From the IMG/VR virus record IMGVR_UViG_3300031841_002281, positions 1-38,490 of that record: 38,490 nt of DNA. One strand, 5' to 3'. The position numbers were made by a program, and so were the translations under genes. Position 1 is the stretch's first letter. The number at the start of each line of letters is the position of its first letter. The notes under the pieces are model-generated. The model saw nothing but the letters and a program-made list of their open reading frames with translations. It made no database searches and had not been told where the DNA came from. The DNA is from a virus. Shown piece by piece: positions 1,786 to 25,820 of this stretch.

Positions 1786-4700
1786 CTAATTCATTTTTGC
1801 TTCGATGAATAATTTAGAGTATTCTTCTAAATTGGTTCTTAGTGTTTGCAACTTACTTTTCCAAAACTTTTTATCTTTTACTGCCGGATCATCAATGTGA
1901 TCTAAACAGCTTTTAGCGTCATCATGGTAAACAGAGTATTCACTATACCAATCACTAAGCACCTCATACTCACGCTCAGTCATTATGAATTTCCGGTTAT
2001 CAGCTCTAACACCAGATATTCGATTATACTCTTTAATCATTTTATGAGTATTTTCACCATAACTAAGTTTTAGTTTTGCATACCTAATATCTTGCGTTCG
2101 ATCTATTTCGTACCCTGTTTCGTACCGTCCGGAATCACTTACCTTGATAAGCCTACCTATTGTTTGTTTACCCCAAGTCTTTAAACCATATTCCAATGTT
2201 GTATCTGTTTCTGGATCTACACCAACGAAATTACCCAGACCAGATTGATCGTATGTCCATAAAAACATTTTTTGTAATCCATGCTTACCTCTAACTAAGT
2301 TTTCATCGTAGCTCAGTATATCCCTACCGGTAAATGAATCCTTGGGATTACCACCACCAATATATTCTTTCCATGCCGGCCCAATCTCTAACAATGGATG
2401 CAGCCCAGGCATCTGTTTTTGTACAAAATCAGATAATCCTTCCAATCCTTTTGTTGGATATACTTCTTCCCCTTCCATTTGTTGTGCTACTTCAAAAAGA
2501 AATGCAGAATGAAATTTACTTATCATTTTCTGCGTTTCATCCATCGGTATTCTAAAATATACAACTTTAGCACCTATCGGAATGTCATCAGTAAACACAT
2601 TAATAAACCGATCTATGCCTTCTGAATCTACATAAACATACCCCATTGGTATACAATGGTAATTATCTTGGTCATAGCTTGGTATCATTTCCATTGCTTT
2701 TTTAACAGCAGCACCAAACAACCCTACTAAGCCACCAACTTTTAGCATCGTCCACATACCAGAGGATCTCATATATTTTAACCACCAACTAGCAGTAACT
2801 CCGGCATTTGTTTGTCGATCAGATCTGTTTCCACCGGGTCTACCTCCATAATTTGGCATTTGTTCAGATCCACCGGGAAATCTTGGTGGTAATTTACCAC
2901 CACCACCAGATCCACCACTCAGAGGACCGAGCCCAAGAAATCTTTTGCGATCTGTTGTACCCATGCCTTTAACTTGTCCAGACATAAGTTTGAAATCCAT
3001 CATGTAACCTTTCATAGCTACATTGATAAATGGCATTAATGCTCCACTCATGTAAGCAACTTTACCTCTTCTCCAATATGGAGGAACTCCAGAATAATTT
3101 CGCACGAACTCTCCGGCTTCTTCCGGCTTAATACCTAACTCTCTTGTTAAGATATAATAGGGAGCAGTTTTAGCTAAAGTTTCAAATGTTTGCCCTATTT
3201 GTAAGATCTTACCACCCATCCATTCTAAAGGTTTTAAGAATTTCTCTAGCTTGGCATATAATCCTTTTTCATTTTTTGGTGCTAATTTATATCTCTCCAA
3301 TATCATTTTGAAGATACCACTTTCATCTTCGTAAACATTTTGAGAATAATTATCAAAAGGTGTACCAATAGCACCAACCTCCATCATTTCTTGTACTATA
3401 GGTGAAAGCTCACCTTTAATCCTACCCCATGATGTTCTCCAAAGTTTTTTATAGGCTTTAAGAAGTTGCAAGCGACTAACTTTATTAGGAAGATTCACCC
3501 AAGTTCTATTAAAATCCCTCATTGGTGATAAGATCCATTGGAAACCGGGATTATAAGTTATGAAAAGCGGATAGAAAAACTTTCTGAATGTTAAATTACC
3601 AAAGATTCCTATAACCCCATCAAACATAGGATCTACTCCTTTATGTGCCTGGGCTACATCCCAAGGCACAACATATTCAAATAACTCTCCATTCCTTACT
3701 AGAGTAATTGTACCTTCTTTCCATTTACTACGATTGATCTCAGAACGAACACTATCGTTATACACCTTTTTCCGAGCTAAAATATTTCGATCAAATACCA
3801 TTTTGTAATCTAGCTCCCGGATTTCATTTGGGAAATAACTTTCCATCAACCTAACTGTAGCAGTTTGTGCTCTATGCTTCTCTAACAACCTTAAAGCAGC
3901 AAGTGCTTTCATTACCATGATGGGAAATGGATTCATTCCCGGCTTAAAAGAACCTACTTGTTTTTTTATACCGGCTGGCACATAGGGACGATCCATGAAA
4001 TATTCTGCGACTGCAAATGTGGCATAGCTATCTTTGTTTGGTAAAATATGGTCATGCCATGTTCTAGCTGTAAACATACCTTCCTTGTAAAGATCCTCAT
4101 AGATCTCAAAGAACATCCTACGAAACTTTTTAGCGTGTAGATCAAGTATAGCAATTTTATCAGATCCCAACTCACCCATCATAGATAGTAAATTTCTACG
4201 AGCTTCTGTTGGTGTAGTGCCATACTCATTAGCAATTTGAGATCTACCTGTACCCATTCGATTTGTCTCATGGATAATACGAGTAAACATTAAATACTGA
4301 CCAAAGTCTTCTAAAGTAAGTGCATAGTCATTTAAGCCACCTACAATTTCTCTATAGACCTTAGATACCCATATATAAGGTTTGTTATTAGAAAATGGAT
4401 GTACACCCCATAACATCTCTGGATCTTCCGACCAATCGAAAGTAGCTCCTTGCTCTTTTGCTTTTTTTACTCGTTTCTGAACTCCGTAAGCATAATCGTA
4501 ATGGTCTACTTGCAACTTACTCCAAAATTGCCGAGCTGATGTTACAGCTTTTCTTTGCAAACTATCTTCGTAAACTATTTGTTCTTGCAGCTTCCATCGC
4601 TTTCTTTGCTCTTCAAGCCTATTACGCAATACCCCACTAGCTTGATTTGTTCTAATGAAATCCCAAACTTTTCTTATTTTTGCCTCTAAACTTGGTTTAG

Positions 4701-7700
4701 TAGGTAAGTATGAAAAGAATGATTGCCAGAACATCGGTGCACGTTCTTGTAATTCATGTGGTGCACAGAATAAAACCGACAATGTATCTGCGTACAACTC
4801 CACAGATGATTGCCGATATGCTATATAGCTTGGATCTCCCTCTATTGGCTTCCACCAATCCATTAGATCCAATAGTTCAGCTCTAATTAATTTTTCATCA
4901 AGCATACCACCTTCACCCATAGTCTGTGCAAGCAATTGGTGGTATCGTGGTTTAGATTCTTTTTTTATTCTTTTATTAAGTGCATCTCTAGCTACCGGTA
5001 CATCTTGTTGATTTATAGGAGCTAAATATTCTGCATAAGCATCCTTCCAACCGGTTTGCCGCTTCATGTTTTTGAATGGATCAAGTTGCTTTGCTTCTGC
5101 TATCTCTAACCATTCTTTATAAATCTCTTCAGTAATTTGCTTTTCTGCGTTACTCCTAATTTTTCTCCGTTCTTGCGGAGTCATAGTAAAGTCAGTTACA
5201 GGAGCACCCATAAATGCCGGTAACTGCTTGTCTTTATTATCATTAGCACTAGCAATTCGTCCTAATATATTACCACGCTTAATATTGAAATCATCCATGT
5301 AGTCGAACACATGACCCATTTCATGGGCAAATGTCATTGCAGCTTGGTCGTTTGACATTTTAAAAGTGTTTGGATTGATTGCCATAAACCAATCCTTCCT
5401 ACCATAAGGGGCTACATAACCTAAAGAATCCCTAGATTTTTTAAGTTTTGGAAATTCTCCTTTTATTGCTACATACAATTTAACAAGCTCTGGAAATCTT
5501 ATCGGTGGTATAGCTTCTAAGTTAAACTTTTGCTTAACTACATTTCCATTACGATCTATGTAATCAAAGCAAGATTCCACCGGCTCACTTCTTCTACCAC
5601 CAATAGCTTGGATTGGCTTTTCTCCGTATTGACCTTGTTTTTGCTCAACTGAAATTAAATCATTATTTCCAAACCCTAAGTCATTACCATTTGCTATATT
5701 AAAACCATCTCTCCACTCACTACCCTCCTTTATTACATCTAAGGTATTTTGGGCGGCATCGAATATAACACTATCATTTAATATTTGCTGATCTGCTTGT
5801 TCTTTTGTTTTTGCCGGTGGTTCATAAAGGATAATTTGGCTACTACCTATTGCTTGTGCTTTAAGTCTTATTTTACCAATAAAACTACTTGGATCTGACC
5901 TTGTTCCATCATCAATGATTTCTTTAGTCACTCCTCTAATTATATTTTTACGATCTAAATAAAATACAAAATAGCCATTGCCGTTTGCGTTACTCAAATC
6001 ACCATCAAATTTTTGCATAAATTGATTGATGTAATGAATAGCGTGTTCTGTTTCATTCATCTTATAACCACTAATCGGATTATATTCCTTAGTGATATGA
6101 AACATATCTTGTTGAATAGCTATATCTTTTATTATTCCATAATGGTGAGTATTATCTGATCTTTTAGCAAAAGCGTATTCACCATGGTCTAAAACAATTG
6201 AACCTACATAGTTAGATTTGTACTTCATCCCTTCGTGCATTTTGTCATCGGTAACACTAGGTGATGGATCTCCAGATGGATGGTTATGAACTATATAAAA
6301 TTCATCATATTTCGTATTAAATTCTTTAACTGCCTTGGGATCTATATTAGCTGCATGAGGACTATTTAGGGTAGTAGTTTGAACTTCTTGTATAATTCCA
6401 TCTTTAACACCAACTACATGAGCATATTCTAAATTTGGACTTCTTAATACTTGTGCGTGTTTTATGAACTCTTCAATATTACTTGGATCTGGCATTGCTT
6501 TACCGATCAGACTTGTAGTTTTGACCGGATCTATACTTGCAATAAGACCACCGGTTAAAAGTTGTTCAATATCCCTAGTAGAATCTTTTGCTTTCTGTAT
6601 GTCTCGTAATCCTTTGAGCTCTGCATCAAGATCCCTTTGCACTAAATCTAAGTATGCTTCAGATAGTTGCGGAAACCATCTAACAAAATGATACCTAATA
6701 TTTTCGTAATTTCCATCTCGTTCAGTTATCCACCAATGCACAAACGACTCGATACAAAATTCTATTTGTTCTTCTGTAAGTAATGTGTGTGGCTTAACAT
6801 TACCGATCATGTGATCTTTATTTGCAGCTATTGCTCTAGCTATACTCGGAGATGCCGGTGCTAATTTTTTTAGCTTATTTAAAGTATGCCTATACCTATT
6901 TTGCCGAATAGCTGCCCTAGCTTTTAGCTTTAAATTGCGTGGATTAATTACATCCCTTACACCATAAGGAGAGCTTGGCTCTTCCGTACGAATAGGCATT
7001 TGCACCAACCAAGCAGCCGGATCACCCTTAATACCCGGACGCATCATTACAATAAGTGGTGCATTTCTTCCATCTGGTCTAAATTCAATAACTCCAAGTT
7101 TTAATTCTGCTACAGCTTTTGCTATATCTGCTAAAAACTTTGAATTTATAACGACATCTGGTTTCCGTTTTACCGGTGCATTAGGACTAGAATATTCAAA
7201 TGATGCGTCATTATGATAAGTGTACATTGATATTTTACCATCTGTACCCAACTGCATCCCAATATTCATCCCGGCATCGGTTTTATTCCGGGACATTAGA
7301 TTTAACGAAGTTGCCCAGGTATGCAAAGTTGCTGAATCCAATTGCCAATTTAGATCCGGCTTAAAATATTTATCAGTAAACGAGAAAAAATCTTTATCAC
7401 TATTTAATACACCCTTTGGTACAACATGATGAAGTGGAGGATACTTTCCTCCTTCCTTGTTTTGTAAAATATTTTTTTCATCTAAAGCCACAACCCCACT
7501 AGGGAGCTTACCGGTTTTTTGGTTTTTAATAAATATTAGCCTACGACCATCTGTAGCAGCGATTGTTTCGTAAGGTAATTTATTACCATTATGCAACTGA
7601 ACTACATTTTTGAGCATATATCGCTCAAGATTTGTACTTACAAAATAGTTTCCGGCTTTTGCTAAATCACCTTTACCTCTCGGATAAGGTGTAGGTTTAA

Positions 7701-10700
7701 GTGCCTTTGGTGCTTTTGCCCCGGTTGGTGAAGTAGCCTTCCTAAAGTTGATAGCATTTTTACCAATATTCTTTTTAAAAGCCTCAATTTCTTTCTTACC
7801 ATTGATAAGTCGTATTATGCCGTCATACGGCACTTTCAGCTCAATATATGGTAGGCTTCCGGCATTTAATAATTTAGTTCTAAATTTTTGGAGATCGTGA
7901 AGCATACCCTCTTCCTTAGTCTTTGGATCTCGCTTGGCTTCTTCGTATCTCTTTTCTAATCTTTTATATTCTTTAAGATCCTCTTTAGATAATGCTTCAT
8001 ACGGATCATCGTATGTATTTTTTATAGATTTAAGTTTATCTACAATGTACTTTCTTTGCTGTTTAATAATAAAATCATCAGCTTTTTCAGACATTGGGGT
8101 TTCACCGGATCTAATCCTATCTAATTCATCCTCAATCTTTTTTTGCATATTCGCAAAAATTTCATCCGGCTCTGTTTTTTCTTCTTCACTTGGTGGCTTA
8201 ACTTCAATTTCCGGAGTAGCATTTTCAAAACGCTCAATCCCCATTTCGTAATCGAAATTTAATTCACGAAGTTCTTTTAGCCAATCTGGATACCTACCAC
8301 CATTCTTCCATTCATCTTTTTGCTCTAAAAATGCTTGCAGCTCTGGAGTCTTTGTTGGGTTCTTATTTTCTTTTACAAACTGCTGTGCCTTTCTTTCATC
8401 TCTACTAATTACATCTTTTTTATGGATTGCATAATTATTAAAGTGATTGAGAAAATTAAAAAATCTATCAAACTTTATTCTCCATAAATCATTGTTCTTA
8501 ATTTTTGTTGGAGACGGAATAGCTGAATCAATTAGTCTCGCAAGGTTGTTACGATACTGCACAGCTTCTTTTTTTAGCTTTTCTTCAGTTTCTCTATTTA
8601 ACCTATTTATTATTTTAGGCTGCTTTGTAACCGGATCTGGCTGTTCAGCGATTGGCTCTAAACTACCTGTTTTAATTCTGTGTAATATTGATCTTAAAGC
8701 CCTAATTGATTTTACATACTTACCTTTTAAATCTTTTTCTGTGCCGGCATCCCTAAGATACATAAGCGATTCAGTAGTGTTTTCTTCTACTAACCTTGTT
8801 ACATCTAATAAATATGTAAACTCTGCATCATTAATAAGCTGGTCAAAGTTAGCCCCAAAACGATTTATACCATCAAAATCAGTAGTCGTTGCCTCACCCT
8901 TTTGCATTTCAAATATAGATTGTATTTTTGCGGTGAGCTCATCTATATTTACTTCAGATCTTTTTGGTAATGTATTATCTCCAAACTTTTCTATAAATTT
9001 TTCAGCAGACTTTTTGACTTTTTGAGAATACTTATCGTCACTTTTTAAAACTTCTTCTGCGTAAGCTAATCCTATTTTTATTGTTTCTTGCTTAATATAT
9101 TCAAGATCCCCACCTTCATAAATTAGCTTTTTATTATAGGAAATTGGCCCAGACCTCGCACTTATATTTGTGCTAAAATCTACATTAAAGAATACACCTT
9201 CATCAAATAAAGCATAGTTAGCAGATAATTTAAAATCTCCTTCATCCCATATAACTTCAACATCCTCGTTAATGATTACATCGTTTTCATTTATTTCATA
9301 TTCCTTATGTAAACCTTTAACCTTTTTAACAGCTACACTACCGGTTAATCCTGTTTCCGGATCTACAGGAGATTCCGGCTCTACTATTGTCACATTAGGA
9401 TCTATCGGCTCTTGCTCTACCTCATCTTCATCTAATTTAGTTATAGGAGTTTCTAATCCTTCAAAATCATAGTCTTCATCTTCCGGATCTTGGTCTACAG
9501 GAGCAGTAGGCTCTACAGGAGTAGATGCCTCTTCTGCTTTCTTCTTAATCCATTCTCCTCTATTAGTTTTTGGGAATATTGTTTCTAGTAACTTTTGAAA
9601 CGCATATCGATCTATTTGCCCCGGTCCACCTATTTCATAACCTAAAATTTCCTCTATTTCATAAAGAGTTTTGTTTTCATTCAATAACTTAAATATCTCA
9701 AGAAACTCTTTATCATCATAAGCTACTGCCCTGGCTACCTCTGAAACTTCATTTGGAGTCCACCCGGCTTGTTGAGGAACTGTAGAATATATTTCATCTA
9801 CCCAATCTGTCCAATTTTCATGCTCTGGTATATCATCTACTAAACCAAGGTTTTGTGCTGCTACTTCCATGTTTTCTTTTTTAACTGCATTAACACTTGT
9901 GCGACCAAGAGCAGTATCAGCAGAAATTATAGCTTCCGGCATTTGCTCCCTAATAACTTCAATTAGCTCCTTACCTCTTTGACTTGCCGGATCTACACCA
10001 AGTAAGTGGAATTTGTTATAGGGTTTTAACAATCCTGTAGTAAATAATGATCTAAGCTCTGGTACATTTACACGGCTTAAATTACCCGGTATACCTATGG
10101 TAACATTTTCAACCATGTCAGCCGGTACAGATGCTTCAGTAAACTTACCTCCACTTCGCTCCCTTTGCATTACATAGATATAATTTACATCTTGTAGTGC
10201 ATCTCTGCGTTTTATAGCAGAATAAGCTAAATCCGTATAATCTCTTGTAAGAGCTGCTGAATCTAGTGCATCTGGTAGTATAACATAAAGATTTTCCGGC
10301 TTTGCACCGGCTTGTACAAGCTCATCTAAACGATCAATAAGATCCGTAAATGAATCACCATACGCTTCATCCATTCCACCACCGGTATATAAACCATGTT
10401 CTAAAAATACATTTTGGTTAAGTTGCGTTAGATCCACAACCTTAGATACCATGCTTTTACTTAGTGGTTCATTTAATCTAACACCAATTTGACCACCACC
10501 GGCTATAGCATTTGCTGCATCCGTAGGACTACGCTCTAAGCCACTTACAAAACTAAGCCCCGGATCTACTTTATCTTTTGGTTTTGGTGGTATAGCGGGT
10601 GGATTAGCTATTCCTTTTGTAGTCTCTGCTGTCTCAATAGCTAATTTCTCTATATCTGATTTTGGTGGCGTTGGATCTTTTACTTGAGCTTCTGCTTTTT

Positions 10701-12306
10701 CTACAACCTTTTCTTGTTTTGGTGCTTTAGCTTTCCTTGCTATAACAATTTGGTTTGCCAACATACTCCTAAGAGCCGGCAATTTCTCTGTCCATGCCCT
10801 TGGACTTAATGCTTGGAGCTTAAAACCATTCCTTCCGGTAGCGATGAACTCCATTGGAATACCCATGCGTTCAGCCTGTACTTTTACATAGGCTAAGAAA
10901 TTTGCGTCTGTAGCTGTACCTTTACCAGACGCAACAAGATCATTTATTTTATTGTACTCTGCTTTAAATGCTTCCGCAGTTCCAAACTTTTTCTGAAAGT
11001 TTTTATCTGTCCTATAAAATATTGGTCGTAAACCTTTTGCTCCATGATGGATACCTTCACCTAAAGCAACCATTGCCGGTATATTTACAGCAGCAGCTTG
11101 TAATTCTTTTGTTATTTTATTTTGGAAATAACTTTCATCCAATCTTTCAGCCCCGGCATTTCCTGTTTCTTGATAAGCTAACTCATACCCTGTAGCACCG
11201 GCAGCAGTATTAATCATACGATCTTTAGCTCTTTGTACTCCGGCTTTAAATGGATTACCATATTTTGGTGGTGGGATTCTAGTAGTAGATGGAGTCTTAG
11301 ATCTTATTGTAGACATGATCTTACCCATGCCTTTTTGTCCTCCTTGCCATGCTAAATTACCAGAACCAAATTTAGTGAACTGCATAAGAGTTCCACCAAC
11401 CTCTGATAAAGTTTCATAAAATCTTTTATCTTCTTTAGGATACGGTCTTTTAAAACCTCCCATAAATTGCCACATAGGTACATAAGCACCATACCTTCCA
11501 CGAAATTGTTTTTCTTTAGTAGTTAAGGTATTTGCTTCTTCAGACCCCCTTATCACCGGATCTGCTTCTTCTTTAAGTTCCGCTGCAAATTGCACCATAC
11601 TTAAAGGTATGCCATCCGCAAAAGCTCGTAACATATCTTGTGGTACAATTTGTGCCTCACCTACTCCATATTTAAATAATTCCGGAAACTCATTATTATC
11701 AGAATCATTTTGCCACTTATCATGTTGCTCCCATGAGCTTTGAGCTAAGTCAGCATACTGCTCAGAGAATGTATCGTATGCCTGGGCATATTGTGGATCT
11801 AACTTTAAATATTTACTAGCTTCCTCAAATGCAGTTTTCAACTGCAACCTTGTATCGTAATTCATTGGTGGTTTCTTACCACCCTCTACATACATACTAT
11901 CAAATGGAGCTACTTCATAAGGATGTTTTAATTCCGGAGTAACTTTTATTTTATCAATTTCCTCTGCTTTATTAGCAGCCCATTCACTTGCCTTTAATGC
12001 TAAATCATCTGGAATATGTTTTAAGTCTATTGCACCAGACATAAACATGGACACTATTTGTCCTTCTACGGTATCATCTTTAGCAAATGTTTTATCTATA
12101 TAGCTATCCGATGATACTTGCTCTTGTCCTTCATCCGGCCGTAAAGGATCTATATTTTCTTGTTTAGATCCAAGGTAATCATCAGCAAACTGATCGAACT
12201 CAGATTGCTGTAAATACTCGTTAGCTAGTTGGTCAAAAGAACTTTCAGATTCTCCTAAATAATCTGAAGCTAATTGGTCAAAGTTAGTTTGCTGGGTAGG
12301 GTGCAT
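1786..12306 (-). CDS. Giant polyvalent virion protein, 3506 aa
   Basis: This is a multi-domain protein of the polyvalent type that phages package and deliver with their DNA. Residues 8-46 hold three copies of FDQxAxxYL. Residues ~600-810 read like a tRNA-guanine-transglycosylase/DpdA TIM barrel (LEHGLYTGGG 635, LPDALDS 677, GIPGN, FHLLGVD, ISADTALGR with Asp797). An acidic linker spans ~920-1000. Residues ~1550-1775 resemble DnaN (ATDGRRL 1584-1590, QMPIR 1769-1773). HNHPSGDPSPS at 2007 matches the RadC/JAB metal site. HEMGH 2328-2332 is a zincin motif. A Gly-rich stretch lies near 3128, and a hydrophobic segment follows. The ATG lies 23 bases inside the preceding gene. It is the last gene of the late convoy, after the ejection-protein candidates. 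Catalytic roles are inferred from motifs only. Confidence 0.9.
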   Translation of the reverse strand: MHPTQQTNFDQLASDYLGESESSFDQLANEYLQQSEFDQFADDYLGSKQENIDPLRPDEGQEQVSSDSYIDKTFAKDDTVEGQIVSMFMSGAIDLKHIPDDLALKASEWAANKAEEIDKIKVTPELKHPYEVAPFDSMYVEGGKKPPMNYDTRLQLKTAFEEASKYLKLDPQYAQAYDTFSEQYADLAQSSWEQHDKWQNDSDNNEFPELFKYGVGEAQIVPQDMLRAFADGIPLSMVQFAAELKEEADPVIRGSEEANTLTTKEKQFRGRYGAYVPMWQFMGGFKRPYPKEDKRFYETLSEVGGTLMQFTKFGSGNLAWQGGQKGMGKIMSTIRSKTPSTTRIPPPKYGNPFKAGVQRAKDRMINTAAGATGYELAYQETGNAGAERLDESYFQNKITKELQAAAVNIPAMVALGEGIHHGAKGLRPIFYRTDKNFQKKFGTAEAFKAEYNKINDLVASGKGTATDANFLAYVKVQAERMGIPMEFIATGRNGFKLQALSPRAWTEKLPALRSMLANQIVIARKAKAPKQEKVVEKAEAQVKDPTPPKSDIEKLAIETAETTKGIANPPAIPPKPKDKVDPGLSFVSGLERSPTDAANAIAGGGQIGVRLNEPLSKSMVSKVVDLTQLNQNVFLEHGLYTGGGMDEAYGDSFTDLIDRLDELVQAGAKPENLYVILPDALDSAALTRDYTDLAYSAIKRRDALQDVNYIYVMQRERSGGKFTEASVPADMVENVTIGIPGNLSRVNVPELRSLFTTGLLKPYNKFHLLGVDPASQRGKELIEVIREQMPEAIISADTALGRTSVNAVKKENMEVAAQNLGLVDDIPEHENWTDWVDEIYSTVPQQAGWTPNEVSEVARAVAYDDKEFLEIFKLLNENKTLYEIEEILGYEIGGPGQIDRYAFQKLLETIFPKTNRGEWIKKKAEEASTPVEPTAPVDQDPEDEDYDFEGLETPITKLDEDEVEQEPIDPNVTIVEPESPVDPETGLTGSVAVKKVKGLHKEYEINENDVIINEDVEVIWDEGDFKLSANYALFDEGVFFNVDFSTNISARSGPISYNKKLIYEGGDLEYIKQETIKIGLAYAEEVLKSDDKYSQKVKKSAEKFIEKFGDNTLPKRSEVNIDELTAKIQSIFEMQKGEATTTDFDGINRFGANFDQLINDAEFTYLLDVTRLVEENTTESLMYLRDAGTEKDLKGKYVKSIRALRSILHRIKTGSLEPIAEQPDPVTKQPKIINRLNRETEEKLKKEAVQYRNNLARLIDSAIPSPTKIKNNDLWRIKFDRFFNFLNHFNNYAIHKKDVISRDERKAQQFVKENKNPTKTPELQAFLEQKDEWKNGGRYPDWLKELRELNFDYEMGIERFENATPEIEVKPPSEEEKTEPDEIFANMQKKIEDELDRIRSGETPMSEKADDFIIKQQRKYIVDKLKSIKNTYDDPYEALSKEDLKEYKRLEKRYEEAKRDPKTKEEGMLHDLQKFRTKLLNAGSLPYIELKVPYDGIIRLINGKKEIEAFKKNIGKNAINFRKATSPTGAKAPKALKPTPYPRGKGDLAKAGNYFVSTNLERYMLKNVVQLHNGNKLPYETIAATDGRRLIFIKNQKTGKLPSGVVALDEKNILQNKEGGKYPPLHHVVPKGVLNSDKDFFSFTDKYFKPDLNWQLDSATLHTWATSLNLMSRNKTDAGMNIGMQLGTDGKISMYTYHNDASFEYSSPNAPVKRKPDVVINSKFLADIAKAVAELKLGVIEFRPDGRNAPLIVMMRPGIKGDPAAWLVQMPIRTEEPSSPYGVRDVINPRNLKLKARAAIRQNRYRHTLNKLKKLAPASPSIARAIAANKDHMIGNVKPHTLLTEEQIEFCIESFVHWWITERDGNYENIRYHFVRWFPQLSEAYLDLVQRDLDAELKGLRDIQKAKDSTRDIEQLLTGGLIASIDPVKTTSLIGKAMPDPSNIEEFIKHAQVLRSPNLEYAHVVGVKDGIIQEVQTTTLNSPHAANIDPKAVKEFNTKYDEFYIVHNHPSGDPSPSVTDDKMHEGMKYKSNYVGSIVLDHGEYAFAKRSDNTHHYGIIKDIAIQQDMFHITKEYNPISGYKMNETEHAIHYINQFMQKFDGDLSNANGNGYFVFYLDRKNIIRGVTKEIIDDGTRSDPSSFIGKIRLKAQAIGSSQIILYEPPAKTKEQADQQILNDSVIFDAAQNTLDVIKEGSEWRDGFNIANGNDLGFGNNDLISVEQKQGQYGEKPIQAIGGRRSEPVESCFDYIDRNGNVVKQKFNLEAIPPIRFPELVKLYVAIKGEFPKLKKSRDSLGYVAPYGRKDWFMAINPNTFKMSNDQAAMTFAHEMGHVFDYMDDFNIKRGNILGRIASANDNKDKQLPAFMGAPVTDFTMTPQERRKIRSNAEKQITEEIYKEWLEIAEAKQLDPFKNMKRQTGWKDAYAEYLAPINQQDVPVARDALNKRIKKESKPRYHQLLAQTMGEGGMLDEKLIRAELLDLMDWWKPIEGDPSYIAYRQSSVELYADTLSVLFCAPHELQERAPMFWQSFFSYLPTKPSLEAKIRKVWDFIRTNQASGVLRNRLEEQRKRWKLQEQIVYEDSLQRKAVTSARQFWSKLQVDHYDYAYGVQKRVKKAKEQGATFDWSEDPEMLWGVHPFSNNKPYIWVSKVYREIVGGLNDYALTLEDFGQYLMFTRIIHETNRMGTGRSQIANEYGTTPTEARRNLLSMMGELGSDKIAILDLHAKKFRRMFFEIYEDLYKEGMFTARTWHDHILPNKDSYATFAVAEYFMDRPYVPAGIKKQVGSFKPGMNPFPIMVMKALAALRLLEKHRAQTATVRLMESYFPNEIRELDYKMVFDRNILARKKVYNDSVRSEINRSKWKEGTITLVRNGELFEYVVPWDVAQAHKGVDPMFDGVIGIFGNLTFRKFFYPLFITYNPGFQWILSPMRDFNRTWVNLPNKVSRLQLLKAYKKLWRTSWGRIKGELSPIVQEMMEVGAIGTPFDNYSQNVYEDESGIFKMILERYKLAPKNEKGLYAKLEKFLKPLEWMGGKILQIGQTFETLAKTAPYYILTRELGIKPEEAGEFVRNYSGVPPYWRRGKVAYMSGALMPFINVAMKGYMMDFKLMSGQVKGMGTTDRKRFLGLGPLSGGSGGGGKLPPRFPGGSEQMPNYGGRPGGNRSDRQTNAGVTASWWLKYMRSSGMWTMLKVGGLVGLFGAAVKKAMEMIPSYDQDNYHCIPMGYVYVDSEGIDRFINVFTDDIPIGAKVVYFRIPMDETQKMISKFHSAFLFEVAQQMEGEEVYPTKGLEGLSDFVQKQMPGLHPLLEIGPAWKEYIGGGNPKDSFTGRDILSYDENLVRGKHGLQKMFLWTYDQSGLGNFVGVDPETDTTLEYGLKTWGKQTIGRLIKVSDSGRYETGYEIDRTQDIRYAKLKLSYGENTHKMIKEYNRISGVRADNRKFIMTEREYEVLSDWYSEYSVYHDDAKSCLDHIDDPAVKDKKFWKSKLQTLRTNLEEYSKLFIEAKMN

Positions 12307-15806: not shown

Positions 15807-18415
15807 TATGTTACATCCCCCCAAAAGCTATTACTACTGCCACCTTGTGTATTTAAATTAAAACCTCCGCTTGTACCAGTCCCTATGTTCCCTCCACCAC
15901 TTCCGGTATTTAAGTTAAAGCCACCACTTGTACCAACTCCTGTATTACCACCGGTATTCGTATTAATATTTAGATTAATATTTGGCTGTTGGCTTTTTAT
16001 ATCCTGTCTATGAGTTTGCTGTAAATTAAAATGATTTGTTACAGCATTATTCCATTGAGTCATACTCTGCTGATGGGCTGCATGAGCAGAATAATTAAAA
16101 TAATCATCACTTTGCCCATCAGTTAAATTTTGTAGTGGTTGCCGACTAACACCCATTATTTGTTTAACTAAGCGATCTGCATTACCTAATGTTGTTCCGG
16201 CTTTCGTATCATATATTGACCAAAAATTTTTGTTAGCTTCTTCCAATCCTCTTGTGTCATAGAGACTCATTACAGCGTTTACTTCAGCTTGTTTATTTAC
16301 AGAGCCAAATAACTTACCATCCAACCATTCCATATACGCTTCTCGCTCAGTCTGTGGTTCTTGATTTAATATAGATCTTACTTCGTCCTCAGTTTTACCA
16401 AGTCTTTCCGCAACAACAGCAATTACTTCATTTTCTGCATCTTCCCTTGTATAAGGATCTTGTTCTTCTTCTTGTGCTACTTCTTCTTGTTGCTGCTCAA
16501 TTACCGGCTTCGTGTTTTGCCAAATCCACTCATCAGATTCCTTACCTCTATTTGTTTCCCAATGCCCCCAATCTTCTAGTTCATGCGACCAGACCCATTT
16601 CTCACCGGTTTCCTCACTAATATGAGGGTATAACCAACCTACATCTTCATTCCATATCCAAGTAGATCCGGCATCATTCTCTGCTTCATACAACCATCCA
16701 CCTTCAGAATCATATTTCCAAAAACCACTAGCACCTTCTTTTTGTGCCATTCTATATTCATAACCCCATTCATCATCAAACCACCCATTACCCATATCTT
16801 CTGGATCAAGATCCATTTGATAAGTGCCGGCAAACCACATTTCTCCATCATCATCACGATAATAATTACTATTATCAAAGTTATACATAAACTTTGAATC
16901 ATCGTCTTCATTTAAACTCTCAAAAGTTTCAAAATTTTCAAGAAATGGACTTGTGGCTTCTTGTATTTGTGGTGCTTCTATGCCTCTAAAATATTGTCCA
17001 GCTTCGTAAAAATAATCTTCTCCGGTAGGGTCAAGTGTGCGTATTGGTTCTACTCCACCATCTTGATACCTTAAATTCCATTCACCATGATCGTACAGCT
17101 CGATAGGCCTATCTAATGCTTTTGCGTAATTTAATAACCTTGGTGTAGGTCTTCCATTATCATCAAAAAAACCTTCAGCAATTGGATCAATATCATACCA
17201 AATATTATCCATATCATCTTGCGACCAATTACTATTAAAAGGCTGCTCCATCCATTTTCCATCTGCATTTTTTTCTGCACCATGATGCGTTTGTAAACGA
17301 ATTGGTAGTCCGTGCACTTGTGCGATATGGAAATTCATATCTTTTTCCATTTCATATTGTGCGTTCATATCCTCCCAAGGCTGCTTTGCCTGTGCAGAGT
17401 ACAAACGATCTAATGCCCAATCCTCATCTGTCCATCGAGTTGTATCCCATGTAGAATATCCCCAATCTTTGAACATTTGCTCTCGCTCTTTGCGTTGAGC
17501 AATGCCTTCTTTTGTTTCACGCAACGCATTACGCATATTAGAAAACCATGTCGTAGGCTTTAAAAGTTTAGCTTCACCTCCAAGAGGATTGAATATACTA
17601 CCTATTGTATCAGTAGCTTCTCCTATTTCTCCTGTTACATCCGTTAGCTGACCACCCAACCGCATATCCTCTGTAATATATTCAGGCGTATGACCTTCTT
17701 CTCCGTATAATTTGTCATTAACAGCTTGTGCATCTGCTTCATTTTTATGGAGATTACCTCTAGCATCTCTCCACCTTTCATACTTACTACCAACCGGTAT
17801 ATTAGCTAGTCCCTGTATGCCTAAACCTAAAGAGTTTCTAACACCTTTTTTAATCATGTCAGCTCCCGGTATTTTTTGTACCGTATCACCAACTACATCA
17901 ATACCTTGATCTATTGTACCATACACATCAAACCCGGTAAGCTCCTCTAAGGCTTTATTACCTATTGAACCACCAAAAGATAAAAGTCCTTTATACCCAC
18001 CTTTTAACCCAGATGATGTAATATTACCAAGACTTGTCATCTCAGCTATATTATCAGCTCCATGATCTGGATCTAAGGCTGCATCCGCTATATCTATGCC
18101 TTGCTTAATAGCAATAGCATTTTTTATTCTATTATATCCTTTTGCAGCTTCCGCTGCTTTCGCATGATTCTGTTTAGCTTGTTCTAAATTAGCTCTTGCA
18201 CCATCCCAATCTTTGGCATCTATGCTCGAATAAACTGCATCAAAAGACTTATCCATGTCGTTCATAAATTGATCGACTTTATCTAATGATGCAGAACCAA
18301 TAGCACCACCTACAGCTTCAATAGCTTCAGAATTTTGTTTTGTCTTATCCCAATTCTTACGCAAAGCAGCAGCACTTGCTACTAAACCATGTATGTCATC
18401 TACTACAAAAGCCAT
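15806..18415 (-). CDS. Large virion protein with Trp-rich repeats, 869 aa
   Basis: The N-terminus (1-200) is helical with amphipathic Ala/Gly stretches (GLLSFGGSIGNKALEEL) that could touch membranes. Residues ~525-640 hold a series of short acidic units ending in GWLY, such as GSTWIWNEDVGWLY, WKYDSEGGWLYE and KWVWSHELEDWGHW. The C-terminus (~815-869) is Asn/Gly/Thr-rich with the peptide GTSGGFNLNT repeated. No enzyme motif is seen. It precedes the other two ejection-protein candidates and follows the fibre genes by 9 bases. SD AAGG precedes the ATG. It is best called an internal virion or tail-associated structural protein; exact role unknown. Confidence 0.65.
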   Translation of the reverse strand: MAFVVDDIHGLVASAAALRKNWDKTKQNSEAIEAVGGAIGSASLDKVDQFMNDMDKSFDAVYSSIDAKDWDGARANLEQAKQNHAKAAEAAKGYNRIKNAIAIKQGIDIADAALDPDHGADNIAEMTSLGNITSSGLKGGYKGLLSFGGSIGNKALEELTGFDVYGTIDQGIDVVGDTVQKIPGADMIKKGVRNSLGLGIQGLANIPVGSKYERWRDARGNLHKNEADAQAVNDKLYGEEGHTPEYITEDMRLGGQLTDVTGEIGEATDTIGSIFNPLGGEAKLLKPTTWFSNMRNALRETKEGIAQRKEREQMFKDWGYSTWDTTRWTDEDWALDRLYSAQAKQPWEDMNAQYEMEKDMNFHIAQVHGLPIRLQTHHGAEKNADGKWMEQPFNSNWSQDDMDNIWYDIDPIAEGFFDDNGRPTPRLLNYAKALDRPIELYDHGEWNLRYQDGGVEPIRTLDPTGEDYFYEAGQYFRGIEAPQIQEATSPFLENFETFESLNEDDDSKFMYNFDNSNYYRDDDGEMWFAGTYQMDLDPEDMGNGWFDDEWGYEYRMAQKEGASGFWKYDSEGGWLYEAENDAGSTWIWNEDVGWLYPHISEETGEKWVWSHELEDWGHWETNRGKESDEWIWQNTKPVIEQQQEEVAQEEEQDPYTREDAENEVIAVVAERLGKTEDEVRSILNQEPQTEREAYMEWLDGKLFGSVNKQAEVNAVMSLYDTRGLEEANKNFWSIYDTKAGTTLGNADRLVKQIMGVSRQPLQNLTDGQSDDYFNYSAHAAHQQSMTQWNNAVTNHFNLQQTHRQDIKSQQPNINLNINTNTGGNTGVGTSGGFNLNTGSGGGNIGTGTSGGFNLNTQGGSSNSFWGDVT

Positions 18416-18424
18416 AGCTGAACC

Positions 18425-21400
18425 TTAATTTGTTGTAATACAAAGAGGAGGTCTGTTTTTGTTAGCCAACTCTGTTTCATTATAAACTATGACGTGCTGA
18501 CCGGTAGTTAGAGCTATAACATCATTTGGCACGTGCTCAGTAACATTTGCCATATTTGCGTGCCAAATATCAACTCTACCCATAAGGATGTGTCCACCAT
18601 CTTCTGTCGTAAATTCTCCTTTATCAGCTTCAGCCTGTGAAACATATCTTGGAAATCTTACTTGATTCACCGTCATAACATTTCCTGTTTTATCTAACTG
18701 AACATGGTGCTTCCTACCTAGTCTCCATACATGATTACTATCTGGTCTTTTCTCAAACCTTTGCGTGAAAGAATTATTTAGAGTATCCTCCCAAAACATT
18801 ACTCTTCCGAAGTACGACCCTTGCCCGGTAGCAAGCTCGTTTTCTAATGCACCAATAACTAAGAAATGCCCATCTGCTGATAACTCTACCGCAGATCCGA
18901 AATTCTCATCTCCATAAGTACCATATTTATTCCAATATTTAGTATACGATGCTGTTCCGGTAGTAGTATCATAATTACGATCAAATACCCAAACTCCACC
19001 AACATCTATTTGTGCCATGTGAGATCCAACCGCAATTCTTGTTCCGTCATGGTTTATTGTTACTGCATACCCAAAGTAATAACTTACTTTATTTTGCATA
19101 CCATCATTAGGATGCCCTACAATATCACTCTGATGCGAAGTATACCCAGATCCATCCCATCTCCAACACCTTGCAGATCCTCTTATGGTTTGTCCTTGGC
19201 TAGTAGAGGCTTGATGACCAAGTGAATTACCAACAACAAAGGTTGATCCATCACCAGACATTGCAATTTTTTTATACGCATTACCAAAACCAATATTTGT
19301 ACCGGAGGTATCTAAATATTCTGTAATATGATTAGTAAGTGTATACCCGGCACTTAAATTATTAGGATCACCTTCCCAACATAAAATACCATTGCTTGTA
19401 CAAAATACAACTTTTGTTCCATCATCACTACAAGCTATGCCTTGATAATCTACTCCTATATAAGGAGATGGATTTTGATTAGGCACTTCTGGATTATCAA
19501 CTTCACGATCCCAAACAACGGTTTGCACCATATCTCCACCATAATGGGCATTAATTGCCCAGGTGAAATTATGAGTATTTACGTATAGCTTTTCATCGTA
19601 GTAATAAAAAGATGTAACCATATTTTTAGAAGTACCGGCATAGTGATTACATAAAGCTATGTTTGTAAATTCTTGCCCCTCATTGTCTTCTTTAAAATAA
19701 CTTTGGTTTGTTGTAGCGTGTTGCGTCACATAATTACCGGGAGTGTCACGTTGTACATGAGTTACACCTATATGCTGACCATCTGGAGATAAATCTACCG
19801 TAGTTTTTGTTTGGTCATAAGAATAGTGATGACTAACGTTAAAACTTTCATCTATGTAATGCTGTCCTCGCAATGATGCTTGCCGAGATCCTGTAATATT
19901 TCCGGTCAAAACATGAAGTCTTTCAGCCGTTCCTACACGCAAACTTAATGGCTGTACAATTCTCCATGCCTTTTGTGGGCTTCCATGTTTATCAGCATAA
20001 TATCCGCTTGTTTTGTATTGCCCACCCACATAAGTTTCTTCGACTGCATTGTATAAAGTTGGTCTTAACTCTAAGGTAAAATTCGGTGTGTTTATACTTG
20101 GTTTAAAAAGGATTGATGCACGTTGACCGGCAATTTGACCACGTGCTTGCAACCCGGTTATACCGGTATCTTTCCATTGGTCATCTACAAATGTTATTAT
20201 AGATTTTACACCATTAAGGTAAATCTCAACTCCATCATAAGTATCAATATTCCAAGGAGCTCGCATTGTATATCTCCAAAATATTGCTGCATTAAAATGC
20301 GGATCTCCATTTGCCTTCTTACCAGAAATAGTAATGCTACCAACATTTCCATCAACTGTATCCTCTCCAGTCCAAGGAGCACCAATGGCTTGTAAAGTGT
20401 TCGTTAAACTACTCCACACATACTCTTCTGTCTCTAAATCCCAATTCCACCATTCAGCACCATAACTAATGTAAGCATCAGGCCAAGCACTAGGTAAATT
20501 TTTCGTAATGTAGATTTTTGCTTCTTTTGATATAGGCACAAGAGTAGAATCTATGCCTACATTTGCCGGATCATCTTTATCGTACGATCCAGATGTACCA
20601 TGTTTAGGCTCATAATATACTACTGAACCGGCTACAGCCGTAACTTTACTTGCACTATGTGCATCATCAACTACAGGATTACTACCCCCCGGATTAGTAG
20701 AAATGAATATATCATCTCCTACTTCAAAAGTAGATGTATTTGGTTGTGTGCTTATACTTACATCAGAAGCATCTATTTCAACATTGTCTTGTGTGACTAT
20801 CCAATTTTCTGAAATATATTCTATGATTTTTTCTACACCATTAATATATATAGTTTGTCCATTTGAGTAAGACGAAGTGTTAGGTGCAAGTTTTCTAACG
20901 ATATGGTTTGTTGTAGAAGTCCAAGATATAATGTTTGTGCCACCAACATTAGGATTTACCATCATAGTGCCATCATTATATATAGCAGAAATTTGGCATA
21001 AATGCTCTGTGTTATCTGCTTTGTTTTCAATACCTACTTGATGACCGGCTTGTATTCTTGCTGCTGCATTGCCATACAAAACAGGAGCTTCGTCAGTTAT
21101 ATAATTTTTAGGCAATGTAACCGCAGTACCATTTTGAAATGTAACTTCGTAACCTAAAATTGACCCGATAATGGCAGCTCCACCATTAATATATAAAGTC
21201 TGTCCTACAGAATGTCCGGTATAATTTGGAGCAGATACACTTAAATTTGTTGCCGTTGAAGCATCTACATTAGTTCCATCTGTAAATGTTATACCATGCC
21301 CAATAATATCTTGGATAGTCTTTAGAGTGAGATCTACATATAATTCATCCCCAATACTATATGCAGTAAAGTTTGGCTTGGATACATAAATATTATCAGC

Positions 21401-24167: not shown

Positions 24168-25820
24168 TTATGGGGCATAATACTTATAAGAGTGACTACT
24201 TGGTAATTTATTACCCAAGCCCCACTTATGTGCTAAATACCCTTCAACCTTTTCTCTATTATTTAAATCTGTACTTACTATTGCCTCACAGAAATTACCA
24301 TCTGTCACAATGCCATTGCCATACTGCGACATGAATACAAATCGACAATTTTGTACGCTAATATTTGTGGGAGCTGCTCGATTATTATCAATCTGACTTC
24401 CATTAAACCATGTAGATGTTTGGTTATTTGCCCAATCCCACCGGATACAATACAGACCTAAAACCCCATCTTGATCTACACTTGCTTGATTAGAACTTAC
24501 AATATTTCCTGTCCAATACCATTTAAAATAATGCGACCCTGTACTACCTAGTGGAATAAAGGTTATAGCATTACCTGCTTCTGTTGCCCATAACGCATCT
24601 TGTCCATTATTAATATCTGGCTTCGCAACAATAAACCAATCTTGTGTTCCTGTACTTAATGTAACCAAACCACTAGATTCTAAATACTCACGATCATCAG
24701 ATAATAAAAGAGATGATCTACCGGCTATTGATGTAGGACTATGCTTTATAGACGCTGTAAAATTTGAGTCTTTAGAATAAGGCAAAATATCAATTGCTGT
24801 GCTACCCTTAGACACAATTTTAGAAATATCCGTAGTGCTTGTATTTTTCGTGATAGTAGAATCATCATCAGCATCTAACCAAAATTGTGTGTTTGTCACG
24901 ATTGGTGCAAATTCAGTATCAGTAGAATTACCTAGCACAGCCGAGGCCATTGCGTTCCCTACAGCTTCTCCGGCATCATACATATTCGCTGCATTTAAAT
25001 GCACATTACTATAAGTGCCGTCATGGTAATCACTAATTTTTACCCAATCATAATAGTTTTGTGATTTTGCTAAAGATGCGTGTGCATTGTTTACATATAA
25101 ATCATTTCCATTTGCATCTGCCGGAGCACAAAATACACTTGGTAAATTAGTTACGCCAAGCTCTTGCTCAAGTGCAGTAATTAATAAACCTAACTCTTCT
25201 TTGTAAACCCAAGGATCTTTTTGTGAATCACTTTCTCCTTGATACCAAACAAATCCTTTCCAAACAGGATTTAGATTTGCATTACCAATTTTTGTTAATG
25301 CGTCAGCTATTGTATTTTTAAGAGCTTGCCAACACTCATCAGTTTTTGACAAATCCCAATCTGCATAGGTTGAATCATTTATCGTAGAAGCACCAACTGC
25401 ATATTTTACTATGCCAATATTTCTATCCGGATAATTGCTTTCTAATATTTTACCAAACCCCCACTCTATACCAAAATAGTCAGAATCTAAACTTGTTTCG
25501 GTGCTATCTCCTCTAGTTTTCCCAAGCTCCATTTTATTGGTATAGCCAGAATAATATAAAGTAGTAGTGGCATTGCTAGTATTGTGATGCCATGCTGTAT
25601 GAAAACCAATATTTATATCACTAGATTGCGAACTTGATAAATCTGCTATTGGAGAATGACCATGTGCATTAGATTGTCCGGCAACTATATATAACTCTAT
25701 ATCTTCCGGCTCTGGTGGTGGTGGCGGCTCTGGTGGTGGTACAGCCGTTCCACTATTATGTAAAGCCGGATTAGCAGCCTTTCCTTGAGCTGCCGGGGCA
25801 TTTGCAGTTCCTAAGAACAT
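24168..25820 (-). CDS. Fibre-associated SGNH esterase with LamG-like domain, 550 aa
   Basis: After a Pro/Glu linker (~27-39) a sialate-O-acetylesterase/CE6-like SGNH hydrolase begins: VAGQSNAHG with the presumed nucleophile Ser50, the WYQGES block at 192-197, and DGTYSNVHLN (267-276) with the likely catalytic Asp/His pair (Asp264 or Asp267, His274). Such enzymes remove acetyl groups from surface polysaccharides during adsorption. The second half (~300-550) reads like a LamG/concanavalin-type jelly roll, ending in EKVEGYLAHKWGLGNKLPSS, a C-terminus common in environmental phage fibres. The start shares one base with the previous stop (TAATG). A sugar-modifying receptor-binding protein is likely. 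Confidence 0.8.
   Translation of the reverse strand: MFLGTANAPAAQGKAANPALHNSGTAVPPPEPPPPPEPEDIELYIVAGQSNAHGHSPIADLSSSQSSDINIGFHTAWHHNTSNATTTLYYSGYTNKMELGKTRGDSTETSLDSDYFGIEWGFGKILESNYPDRNIGIVKYAVGASTINDSTYADWDLSKTDECWQALKNTIADALTKIGNANLNPVWKGFVWYQGESDSQKDPWVYKEELGLLITALEQELGVTNLPSVFCAPADANGNDLYVNNAHASLAKSQNYYDWVKISDYHDGTYSNVHLNAANMYDAGEAVGNAMASAVLGNSTDTEFAPIVTNTQFWLDADDDSTITKNTSTTDISKIVSKGSTAIDILPYSKDSNFTASIKHSPTSIAGRSSLLLSDDREYLESSGLVTLSTGTQDWFIVAKPDINNGQDALWATEAGNAITFIPLGSTGSHYFKWYWTGNIVSSNQASVDQDGVLGLYCIRWDWANNQTSTWFNGSQIDNNRAAPTNISVQNCRFVFMSQYGNGIVTDGNFCEAIVSTDLNNREKVEGYLAHKWGLGNKLPSSHSYKYYAP

What the first reader, a model, noticed from the sequence alone, without database searches (positions are those of the whole stretch)
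6985..7660. Sliding-clamp (DnaN)-like module inside the giant protein
Residues ~1550-1775 of the 3506-aa protein contain AATDGRRLIFI, like DnaN's ATDGHRLA, and ~135 residues later VVINSKFLADIAKAV with WLVQMPIR, like DnaN domain III (..N..YL.DAL.. ending MPMR). The distance from ATDG to the MPxR end (about 190 residues) equals that in E. coli DnaN, as I recall it. A clamp-like module in a probably injected virion protein would be unexpected. It might dock to host polymerase partners or mimic the clamp during early replication.
Basis: partly seen in the sequence, partly recalled or inferred. Interest (0 to 1): 0.85.

Follow-up and report, generated by a model that had tools for sequence, protein, structure and literature searches.

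The report
Sliding-clamp fragment inside giant phage protein
A 3,506-residue phage protein, probably carried in the virus particle and injected with its DNA, contains a cut-down copy of the bacterial DNA sliding clamp that has lost part of the ring but kept the pocket that polymerases and repair proteins bind, so it may dock or decoy the host's replication proteins; the binding itself is untested.

Summary
Residues 1546-1776 (window 7671-6979, minus strand) of the 3,506-aa protein are a degenerate DnaN (beta sliding clamp) module: domain II without its second half, plus domain III. It is found by PHROG models that are themselves DnaN families (3.5e-5, 1.2e-4), by an independent mini-clamp HMM (11.4 bits, best of 416 sequences, best control 8.2), and by AlphaFold2/Foldseek, where the top 50 PDB hits are all DnaN or PCNA. 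What it keeps is the peptide-binding pocket: 13 of 18 E. coli pocket residues are identical, against about 13% elsewhere. The shortened domain II and absent domain I argue against a self-made ring. A divergent version recurs just upstream of the zincin motif in giant proteins of other phages (L011, L015, L051); modelled without any clamp sequence, L051's module still ranks DnaN 1-33 in the PDB, though each hit is weak. The best reading is a ring-less clamp-pocket module in a probably ejected polyvalent protein that docks or sequesters host proteins bearing clamp-binding motifs. The homology is strong; ejection and binding are inferred. The key polyvalent-protein paper lists no clamp domain. 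New variant of a known kind.

The parts
1786..12306 (-). Giant ORF, 3506 aa (P0001), last large gene of the structural module; polyvalent-type protein
   Evidence: residues 2262-3457 shared with giant proteins of more than 100 other viral contigs and with Pelagibacter phage Baldr
6979..7671 (-). DnaN-like module, residues 1546-1776
   Evidence: phrog_3007 3.5e-5, phrog_6615 1.2e-4; mini-clamp HMM 11.4 bits; Foldseek/VIA
7489..7671 (-). Domain IIa half: LERYMLKN...AATDGRRLIFI, residues 1546-1606; carries pocket residues R1562, L1565, T1585, G1587, R1589, L1590
7414..7452 (-). Remnant of domain IIb, GGKYPPLHHVVPK, residues 1619-1631, equivalent to DGRFPDYRRVLPK of E. coli; pocket residues P1623, V1628
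7177..7356 (-). Domain IIIa-like half, residues about 1651-1710 (strand-helix-strand-strand); absent from the phage mini-clamps
   Evidence: TIGR00663 weak match; AF2 strands and helix at low confidence; VIA alignment range
6979..7161 (-). Domain IIIb half, residues 1716-1776, ending WLVQMPIR; pocket residues N1721, F1724, V1768, M1770, P1771, I1772, R1773
   Evidence: (pLDDT about 90)
6184..6315 (-). RadC-like JAB domain, residues 1998-2041, HNHPSGDPSPS, C-terminal to the clamp module
   Evidence: Pfam PF04002 7.9e-6, above gathering score
5293..5325 (-). Zincin (metallopeptidase) motif HEMGH, residues 2328 onwards, start of the conserved C-terminal part
   Evidence: conserved in relatives

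Best explanation
Residues 1546-1776 are a DnaN-derived, ring-less clamp-pocket module inside a polyvalent phage protein. The evidence shows homology to DnaN domains II and III and selective preservation of the peptide-binding pocket. It is inferred that the protein is packaged and ejected with the DNA, as other polyvalent proteins of this type are thought to be. It is inferred that in the host cell the pocket binds proteins carrying clamp-binding motifs (QLxLF type: Pol III alpha and delta, Pol II/IV/V, MutS/MutL, Hda, ligase). In that way the module would either dock the host replication machinery at the incoming phage genome or hold those proteins away from the host clamp in the first minutes of infection. 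It is unlikely to be a processive clamp by itself, because domain I is not found and half of domain II is missing.
For: Homology: top PHROG hits are DnaN-type families; mini-clamp HMM hit in the right register, above 415 controls; AF2 model whose 22 PDB matches with E<=0.001 are all bacterial DnaN, best 1.3e-4, and whose top 50 are all DnaN or PCNA; VIA Z 8.4-9.2 over 139-159 residues, best rows spanning model 13-245 against E. coli 132-366; closest viral model the 217-aa PolIII-beta-type factor of Bacillus phage Sam46, E 3.9e-6. Pocket: of the 18 residues listed for the E. coli pocket in PMC11139829, 13 are identical, and H175R, R246H, Y323F, M364I are mild changes; 12-15% identity elsewhere, Fisher p 7e-8 to 2e-6 with other clamps in the alignment and 2e-5 to 1e-4 with the pair alone. 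The only invariant or near-invariant columns across the window, 3 giant modules and 28 mini-clamps are R, Y, T, G, P, M, P at E. coli positions 152, 153, 172, 174, 242, 362, 363, six of the seven in the listed pocket. Recurrence: divergent copies with the same motif order upstream of the zincin in L011, L015, L051; L051 hits phrog_3007 at 0.006; AF2 of L051 with no clamp rows gives DnaN at Foldseek ranks 1-33 and in all 50 VIA rows. Context: the ORF lies in a virion gene block (terminase, major head protein, internal virion protein matches).
Against: No test of binding or of ejection. No close homologue of the window's module was found, so selection on the pocket could not be measured. The AF2 model is only moderate (mean pLDDT 63.9; most of domain IIIa below 60) and its alignment contained clamps, which biases it; TM-scores are about 0.4. 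The unbiased L051 model matches DnaN only weakly (Foldseek E 0.1-0.6, VIA Z 5.8-6.6, below the tool's own caution level of 8). Pocket residues are among the most conserved of all DnaN residues and help anchor the alignment, so some enrichment is expected from homology alone. SAR11-phage versions have mostly lost the pocket, so pocket function is not essential to the family. No further copy was detected in the 80 loci beyond those already known.
Confidence: 0.6

Rival explanations
1. Decayed clamp kept only as a structural spacer: the module descends from DnaN but its fold is now just a building block of a virion protein, with no binding role.
For: SAR11-phage relatives keep position and shape but mostly lose MPxR and TDG; in the window domain II is already shortened.
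Against: In the window the residues kept are pocket residues (13 of 18) while the rest of the domain has diverged to about 13% identity.
Confidence: 0.22
2. Dominant-negative partner of the host clamp: the retained domain III pairs with domain I of host DnaN and breaks or blocks the ring.
For: The window keeps a domain IIIa-like half, which in DnaN carries the dimer interface (own knowledge) and which phage mini-clamps lack.
Against: IIIa is the least confident part of the model; the L011/L015/L051 versions are reduced there; interface residues were not compared.
Confidence: 0.08
3. Working processivity clamp made by multimerising several copies of the module on DNA.
For: Two-domain clamps such as PCNA and stand-alone phage DnaN-like proteins of about 215 aa annotated as processivity factors exist.
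Against: Embedded in a 3506-aa protein; half of domain II missing; no clamp loader or polymerase recognised in the window.
Confidence: 0.06
4. Chance resemblance of a few motifs in an unrelated fold.
For: No Pfam hit, TIGR00663 only 12.7 bits; individual motifs are short.
Against: Independent HMM, fold search and pocket statistics all agree and in one register; recurrence in other giant proteins.
Confidence: 0.04

Closest known systems
Bacterial beta sliding clamp DnaN (E. coli NP_418156.1, PDB 2pol and others)
   Same: Fold of domains II-III by prediction; 13 of 18 pocket residues; order of motifs RYxL, ATDGxRL, P....VxPK, N..[YF], V.MPxR.
   Different: No domain I found; second half of domain II reduced to about 13 residues; fused inside a giant virion-type protein; no curated model passes its cut-off.
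Phage stand-alone mini-clamps, phrog_3007 (named 'RusA-like' but DnaN by sequence) and phrog_6615; e.g. Serratia phage Eta gp10, Sodalis phage SO-1 gp7; and the 217-aa clamp Sam46 gp53
   Same: Profile hits; same pocket residues near-invariant.
   Different: They are free proteins of 170-217 aa; phrog_3007 types lack domain IIIa, which the window keeps, and keep more of IIb.
Phage-type polyvalent proteins (Iyer et al. 2017, PMC5512222)
   Same: Very large multidomain protein with a zincin-like domain; relatives carry LPD38 and LPD3 matches below cut-off.
   Different: The paper's text mentions no clamp, DnaN or beta subunit and lists RadC only for conjugative elements, while here RadC is in phage proteins.
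Giant protein of Pelagibacter phage EXVC032P Baldr (WDQ27601.1)
   Same: Residues 2325-3338 homologous; a degenerate module with the same C-terminal motif order lies upstream of its zincin.
   Different: Pocket motifs mostly lost; RadC was not sought there by a family scan.

Membership tests
DnaN / beta sliding clamp | Clamp fold (domains II-III) | tested here: met
   Foldseek best E 1.3e-4, VIA Z 8.4-9.2 over 139-159 residues; model moderate and alignment contained clamps
DnaN / beta sliding clamp | Three-domain chain of about 366 residues | tested here: not met
   Module about 231 residues; domain IIb reduced, no domain I detected
DnaN / beta sliding clamp | Peptide-binding pocket residues | tested here: met
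   13 of 18 identical, 4 mild changes, one unaligned with confidence
DnaN / beta sliding clamp | Curated family score (TIGR00663 cut-off 137.65 bits) | tested here: not met
   12.7 bits
DnaN / beta sliding clamp | Closed dimeric ring around DNA, processivity | not testable with these tools
   needs biochemistry
Phage mini-clamp families phrog_3007 / phrog_6615 | Profile similarity | tested here: met
   3.5e-5 and 1.2e-4
Phage mini-clamp families phrog_3007 / phrog_6615 | Stand-alone ORF of 170-220 aa | tested here: not met
   Internal to a 3506-aa ORF without internal stop
Phage polyvalent protein | Very large multidomain protein with zincin-like and accessory domains, in a phage virion gene block | tested here: met
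   RadC above cut-off, HEMGH, shared C-terminus with giant phage proteins, neighbours head and internal virion proteins
Phage polyvalent protein | Curated LPD domain | tested here: inconclusive
   None in the window protein; LPD38 0.0016 in L015 and LPD3 3.3e-4 in L150, below cut-off
Phage polyvalent protein | Packaged and injected with DNA | not testable with these tools
   gene order only

The most novel reading that the evidence does not exclude
Phages deliver, together with their genome, a ring-less clamp pocket that intercepts host proteins bearing clamp-binding motifs in the first minutes of infection, either recruiting the host replisome to the incoming DNA or stripping polymerases and the clamp loader from the host fork; a clamp-derived cassette of giant ejected proteins that recurs across distant phages.
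Probability: 0.4. Interest if true: 0.85.

Novelty: new variant of a known kind. Interest (0 to 1): 0.64.

Why it matters
Clamp-binding motifs are how many bacterial replication and repair proteins find their place. A pocket delivered with the phage genome would be a direct way to take over or jam replication before any phage gene is expressed. Known phage attacks on the clamp, such as Twort gp168, bind the host clamp; this would be the reverse, a fake clamp. The idea is directly testable with a 230-residue fragment and known peptides, and a degenerate relative exists in a cultured Pelagibacter phage. It also shows that a PHROG family named RusA-like is a clamp family.

Tried and rejected
Direct relatives of the module: exact-pattern scan of viral contigs, tblastn of phages and a sequence search of the PDB found none. 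A C-terminal pattern scan with one sequence found none. The HMM comparison without the window row was void because its input files were empty; it was redone. Loading loci by file name failed (files hold several records). The SAR11-phage module profile does not hit the window module and its link to clamps by profile comparison is weak (P 0.13); its link to L011/L015/L051 is better (P 0.0018) and was carried by the structure test. A profile of those modules finds no clamp in the PDB by sequence. Clamp-binding-like peptides (Q-aliphatic-x-L/M-F/L) in the phage's own window proteins: none, so no phage partner is visible here. A working ring and a chance match were considered and ranked low.

Full report
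What was checked. The window is a 38,490-base virus record whose minus strand carries a structural gene block: terminase (phrog_979, weak), portal-like protein, major head protein (phrog_1328, 7.8e-19), a protein matching internal virion proteins (phrog_511, 8.7e-15), tail-fibre-like proteins including one with a SASA carbohydrate esterase domain, and last a 3,506-aa ORF.

Is the resemblance to DnaN real? Pfam finds nothing and NCBIfam's DnaN model is far below its cut-off, so the case rests on more sensitive comparisons. An HMM built from 35 diverse stand-alone mini-clamps fetched from viral contigs scores the giant protein 11.4 bits (P 1.1e-5 for one sequence) and aligns precisely at 1576-1606 and 1716-1773. 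Among 415 controls (block shuffles, related giant proteins, reversed sequences) the best is 8.2 bits.

Structure. AlphaFold2 on residues 1530-1785 with an alignment of three related giant-protein modules and 28 mini-clamps (A5) gave pLDDT 63.9, pTM 0.61, with most of the last 60 residues of the module near 90 and much of domain IIIa below 60. Foldseek's 22 PDB hits with E<=0.001 are all bacterial DnaN, and the top 50 are all DnaN or PCNA. VIA-align gives Z 8.4-9.2 over 139-159 residues, with the best rows spanning model 13-245 against E. coli 132-366. In the viral library the best hit is the 217-aa PolIII-beta-type factor of Bacillus phage Sam46, described by its authors as a sliding clamp (PMC8190038). 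TM-scores are only about 0.4 and the input contained clamps, so this is support and not proof.

Anatomy. The module is E. coli domain II first half (1546-1606), a remnant of the second half that is only GGKYPPLHHVVPK, then domain III (about 1651-1776). Relative to E. coli the step T172-P242 is 38 residues and not 70. The overall ATDG to MPxR distance matches only because other segments are longer. No domain I was seen.

What is kept. The review PMC11139829 lists the 18 residues of the clamp's peptide pocket. The window keeps 13 unchanged: R152, L155, T172, G174, R176, L177, P242, V247, N320, V360, M362, P363, R365. It has H175R, R246H, Y323F, M364I; the residue opposite V344 depends on the alignment. 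Elsewhere identity is 12-15% when other clamps guide the alignment. Fisher p is 7e-8 to 2e-6 in those alignments and 2e-5 to 1e-4 for the bare pair. In the 32-sequence alignment the only invariant or nearly invariant columns correspond to R152, Y153, T172, G174, P242, M362 and P363. The pocket has outlived the ring. Caveat: the pocket is among the most conserved parts of DnaN anyway and the alignment is partly anchored on it.

Recurrence. The C-terminal 1,200 residues (zincin HEMGH onwards) are shared with giant proteins of many viral contigs and with Pelagibacter phage Baldr. Upstream of the zincin most of them differ, but L011, L015 and L051 have modules with the same order: T[DN][GS], P.Y..I.P, and a strand-helix-strand pattern ending G[VL].MP[MI]. 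L051 and L015 hit phrog_3007 weakly (0.006, 0.054). Their profile aligns to the mini-clamp profile with both ends in register (P 4.4e-4). As a test without circularity, L051's module was modelled with giant-protein rows only and no clamp row (A8): pLDDT 76.5, pTM 0.66. Foldseek ranks 1-33 are all DnaN, each at E 0.1-0.6, and all 50 VIA rows are DnaN, Z 5.8-6.6, model 54-217 against E. coli 148-366. Each hit is weak, but the unanimity and register are hard to explain otherwise. In 26 SAR11-phage-like proteins the same place holds a 141-column module whose pocket motifs have mostly decayed. In the 80 loci of the last viral scan no further copy beyond those already found was detected. So it looks like an accessory cassette, best preserved in the window.

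How it most likely works. Shown: clamp ancestry and pocket retention. Inferred: the giant protein is packaged and ejected, as supposed for polyvalent proteins (PMC5512222); the pocket binds clamp-binding motifs of host replication or repair proteins. It could then tether the host replisome to the phage genome or sequester its parts. A self-made ring is unlikely. No clamp-binding-like peptide occurs in the phage's own proteins in this window, which points to host partners, although the phage's replication genes are not in the window.

Known or new? Phage clamps and phage polyvalent proteins are both known. The polyvalent-protein paper mentions no clamp domain, and literature searches for the combination found nothing relevant in the held library. 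I rate it a new variant of a known kind.

Noticed in passing
window 6315-6184 (minus), residues 1998-2041; also L150 residues 1093-1153 and probably L151, L156, L157: RadC-like JAB domain in phage-type giant proteins (PF04002 7.9e-6 in the window; 6.8e-12 in L150); the 2017 polyvalent-protein survey placed RadC only in conjugative-element polyvalent proteins.
   Followed up: partly
PHROG phrog_3007 (e.g. L054 1183-1722, L059 1171-1689): A phage family named 'RusA-like Holliday junction resolvase' is a DnaN-derived mini-clamp family: E. coli DnaN matches it at 6.5e-24. Members lack domain IIIa but keep the pocket.
   Followed up: yes
L057 1144-1722 and L063 1144-1722 (Vibrio phages 1.250.O and 1.024.O): Mini-clamp gene sits directly upstream of an NLPC/P60 endopeptidase gene and a large ORF, after coil-containing proteins, which may be the tail module, an unusual place for a replication protein.
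   Followed up: no
MG065686.1 113831-114928 (Campylobacter phage A18a record): Record contains a dnaN 100% identical to E. coli DnaN, probably host DNA contamination of the deposit.
   Followed up: no
window 24168-25820 (minus): 550-aa tail-fibre-like protein with a SASA sialic-acid acetylesterase domain (PF03629, 2.3e-20), perhaps a receptor-modifying enzyme.
   Followed up: partly
L005 about 17993-18538 (Pelagibacter phage Baldr): Degenerate clamp-like module in a cultured SAR11 phage's giant protein, ending GMLMPRK, offers an experimental handle.
   Followed up: partly
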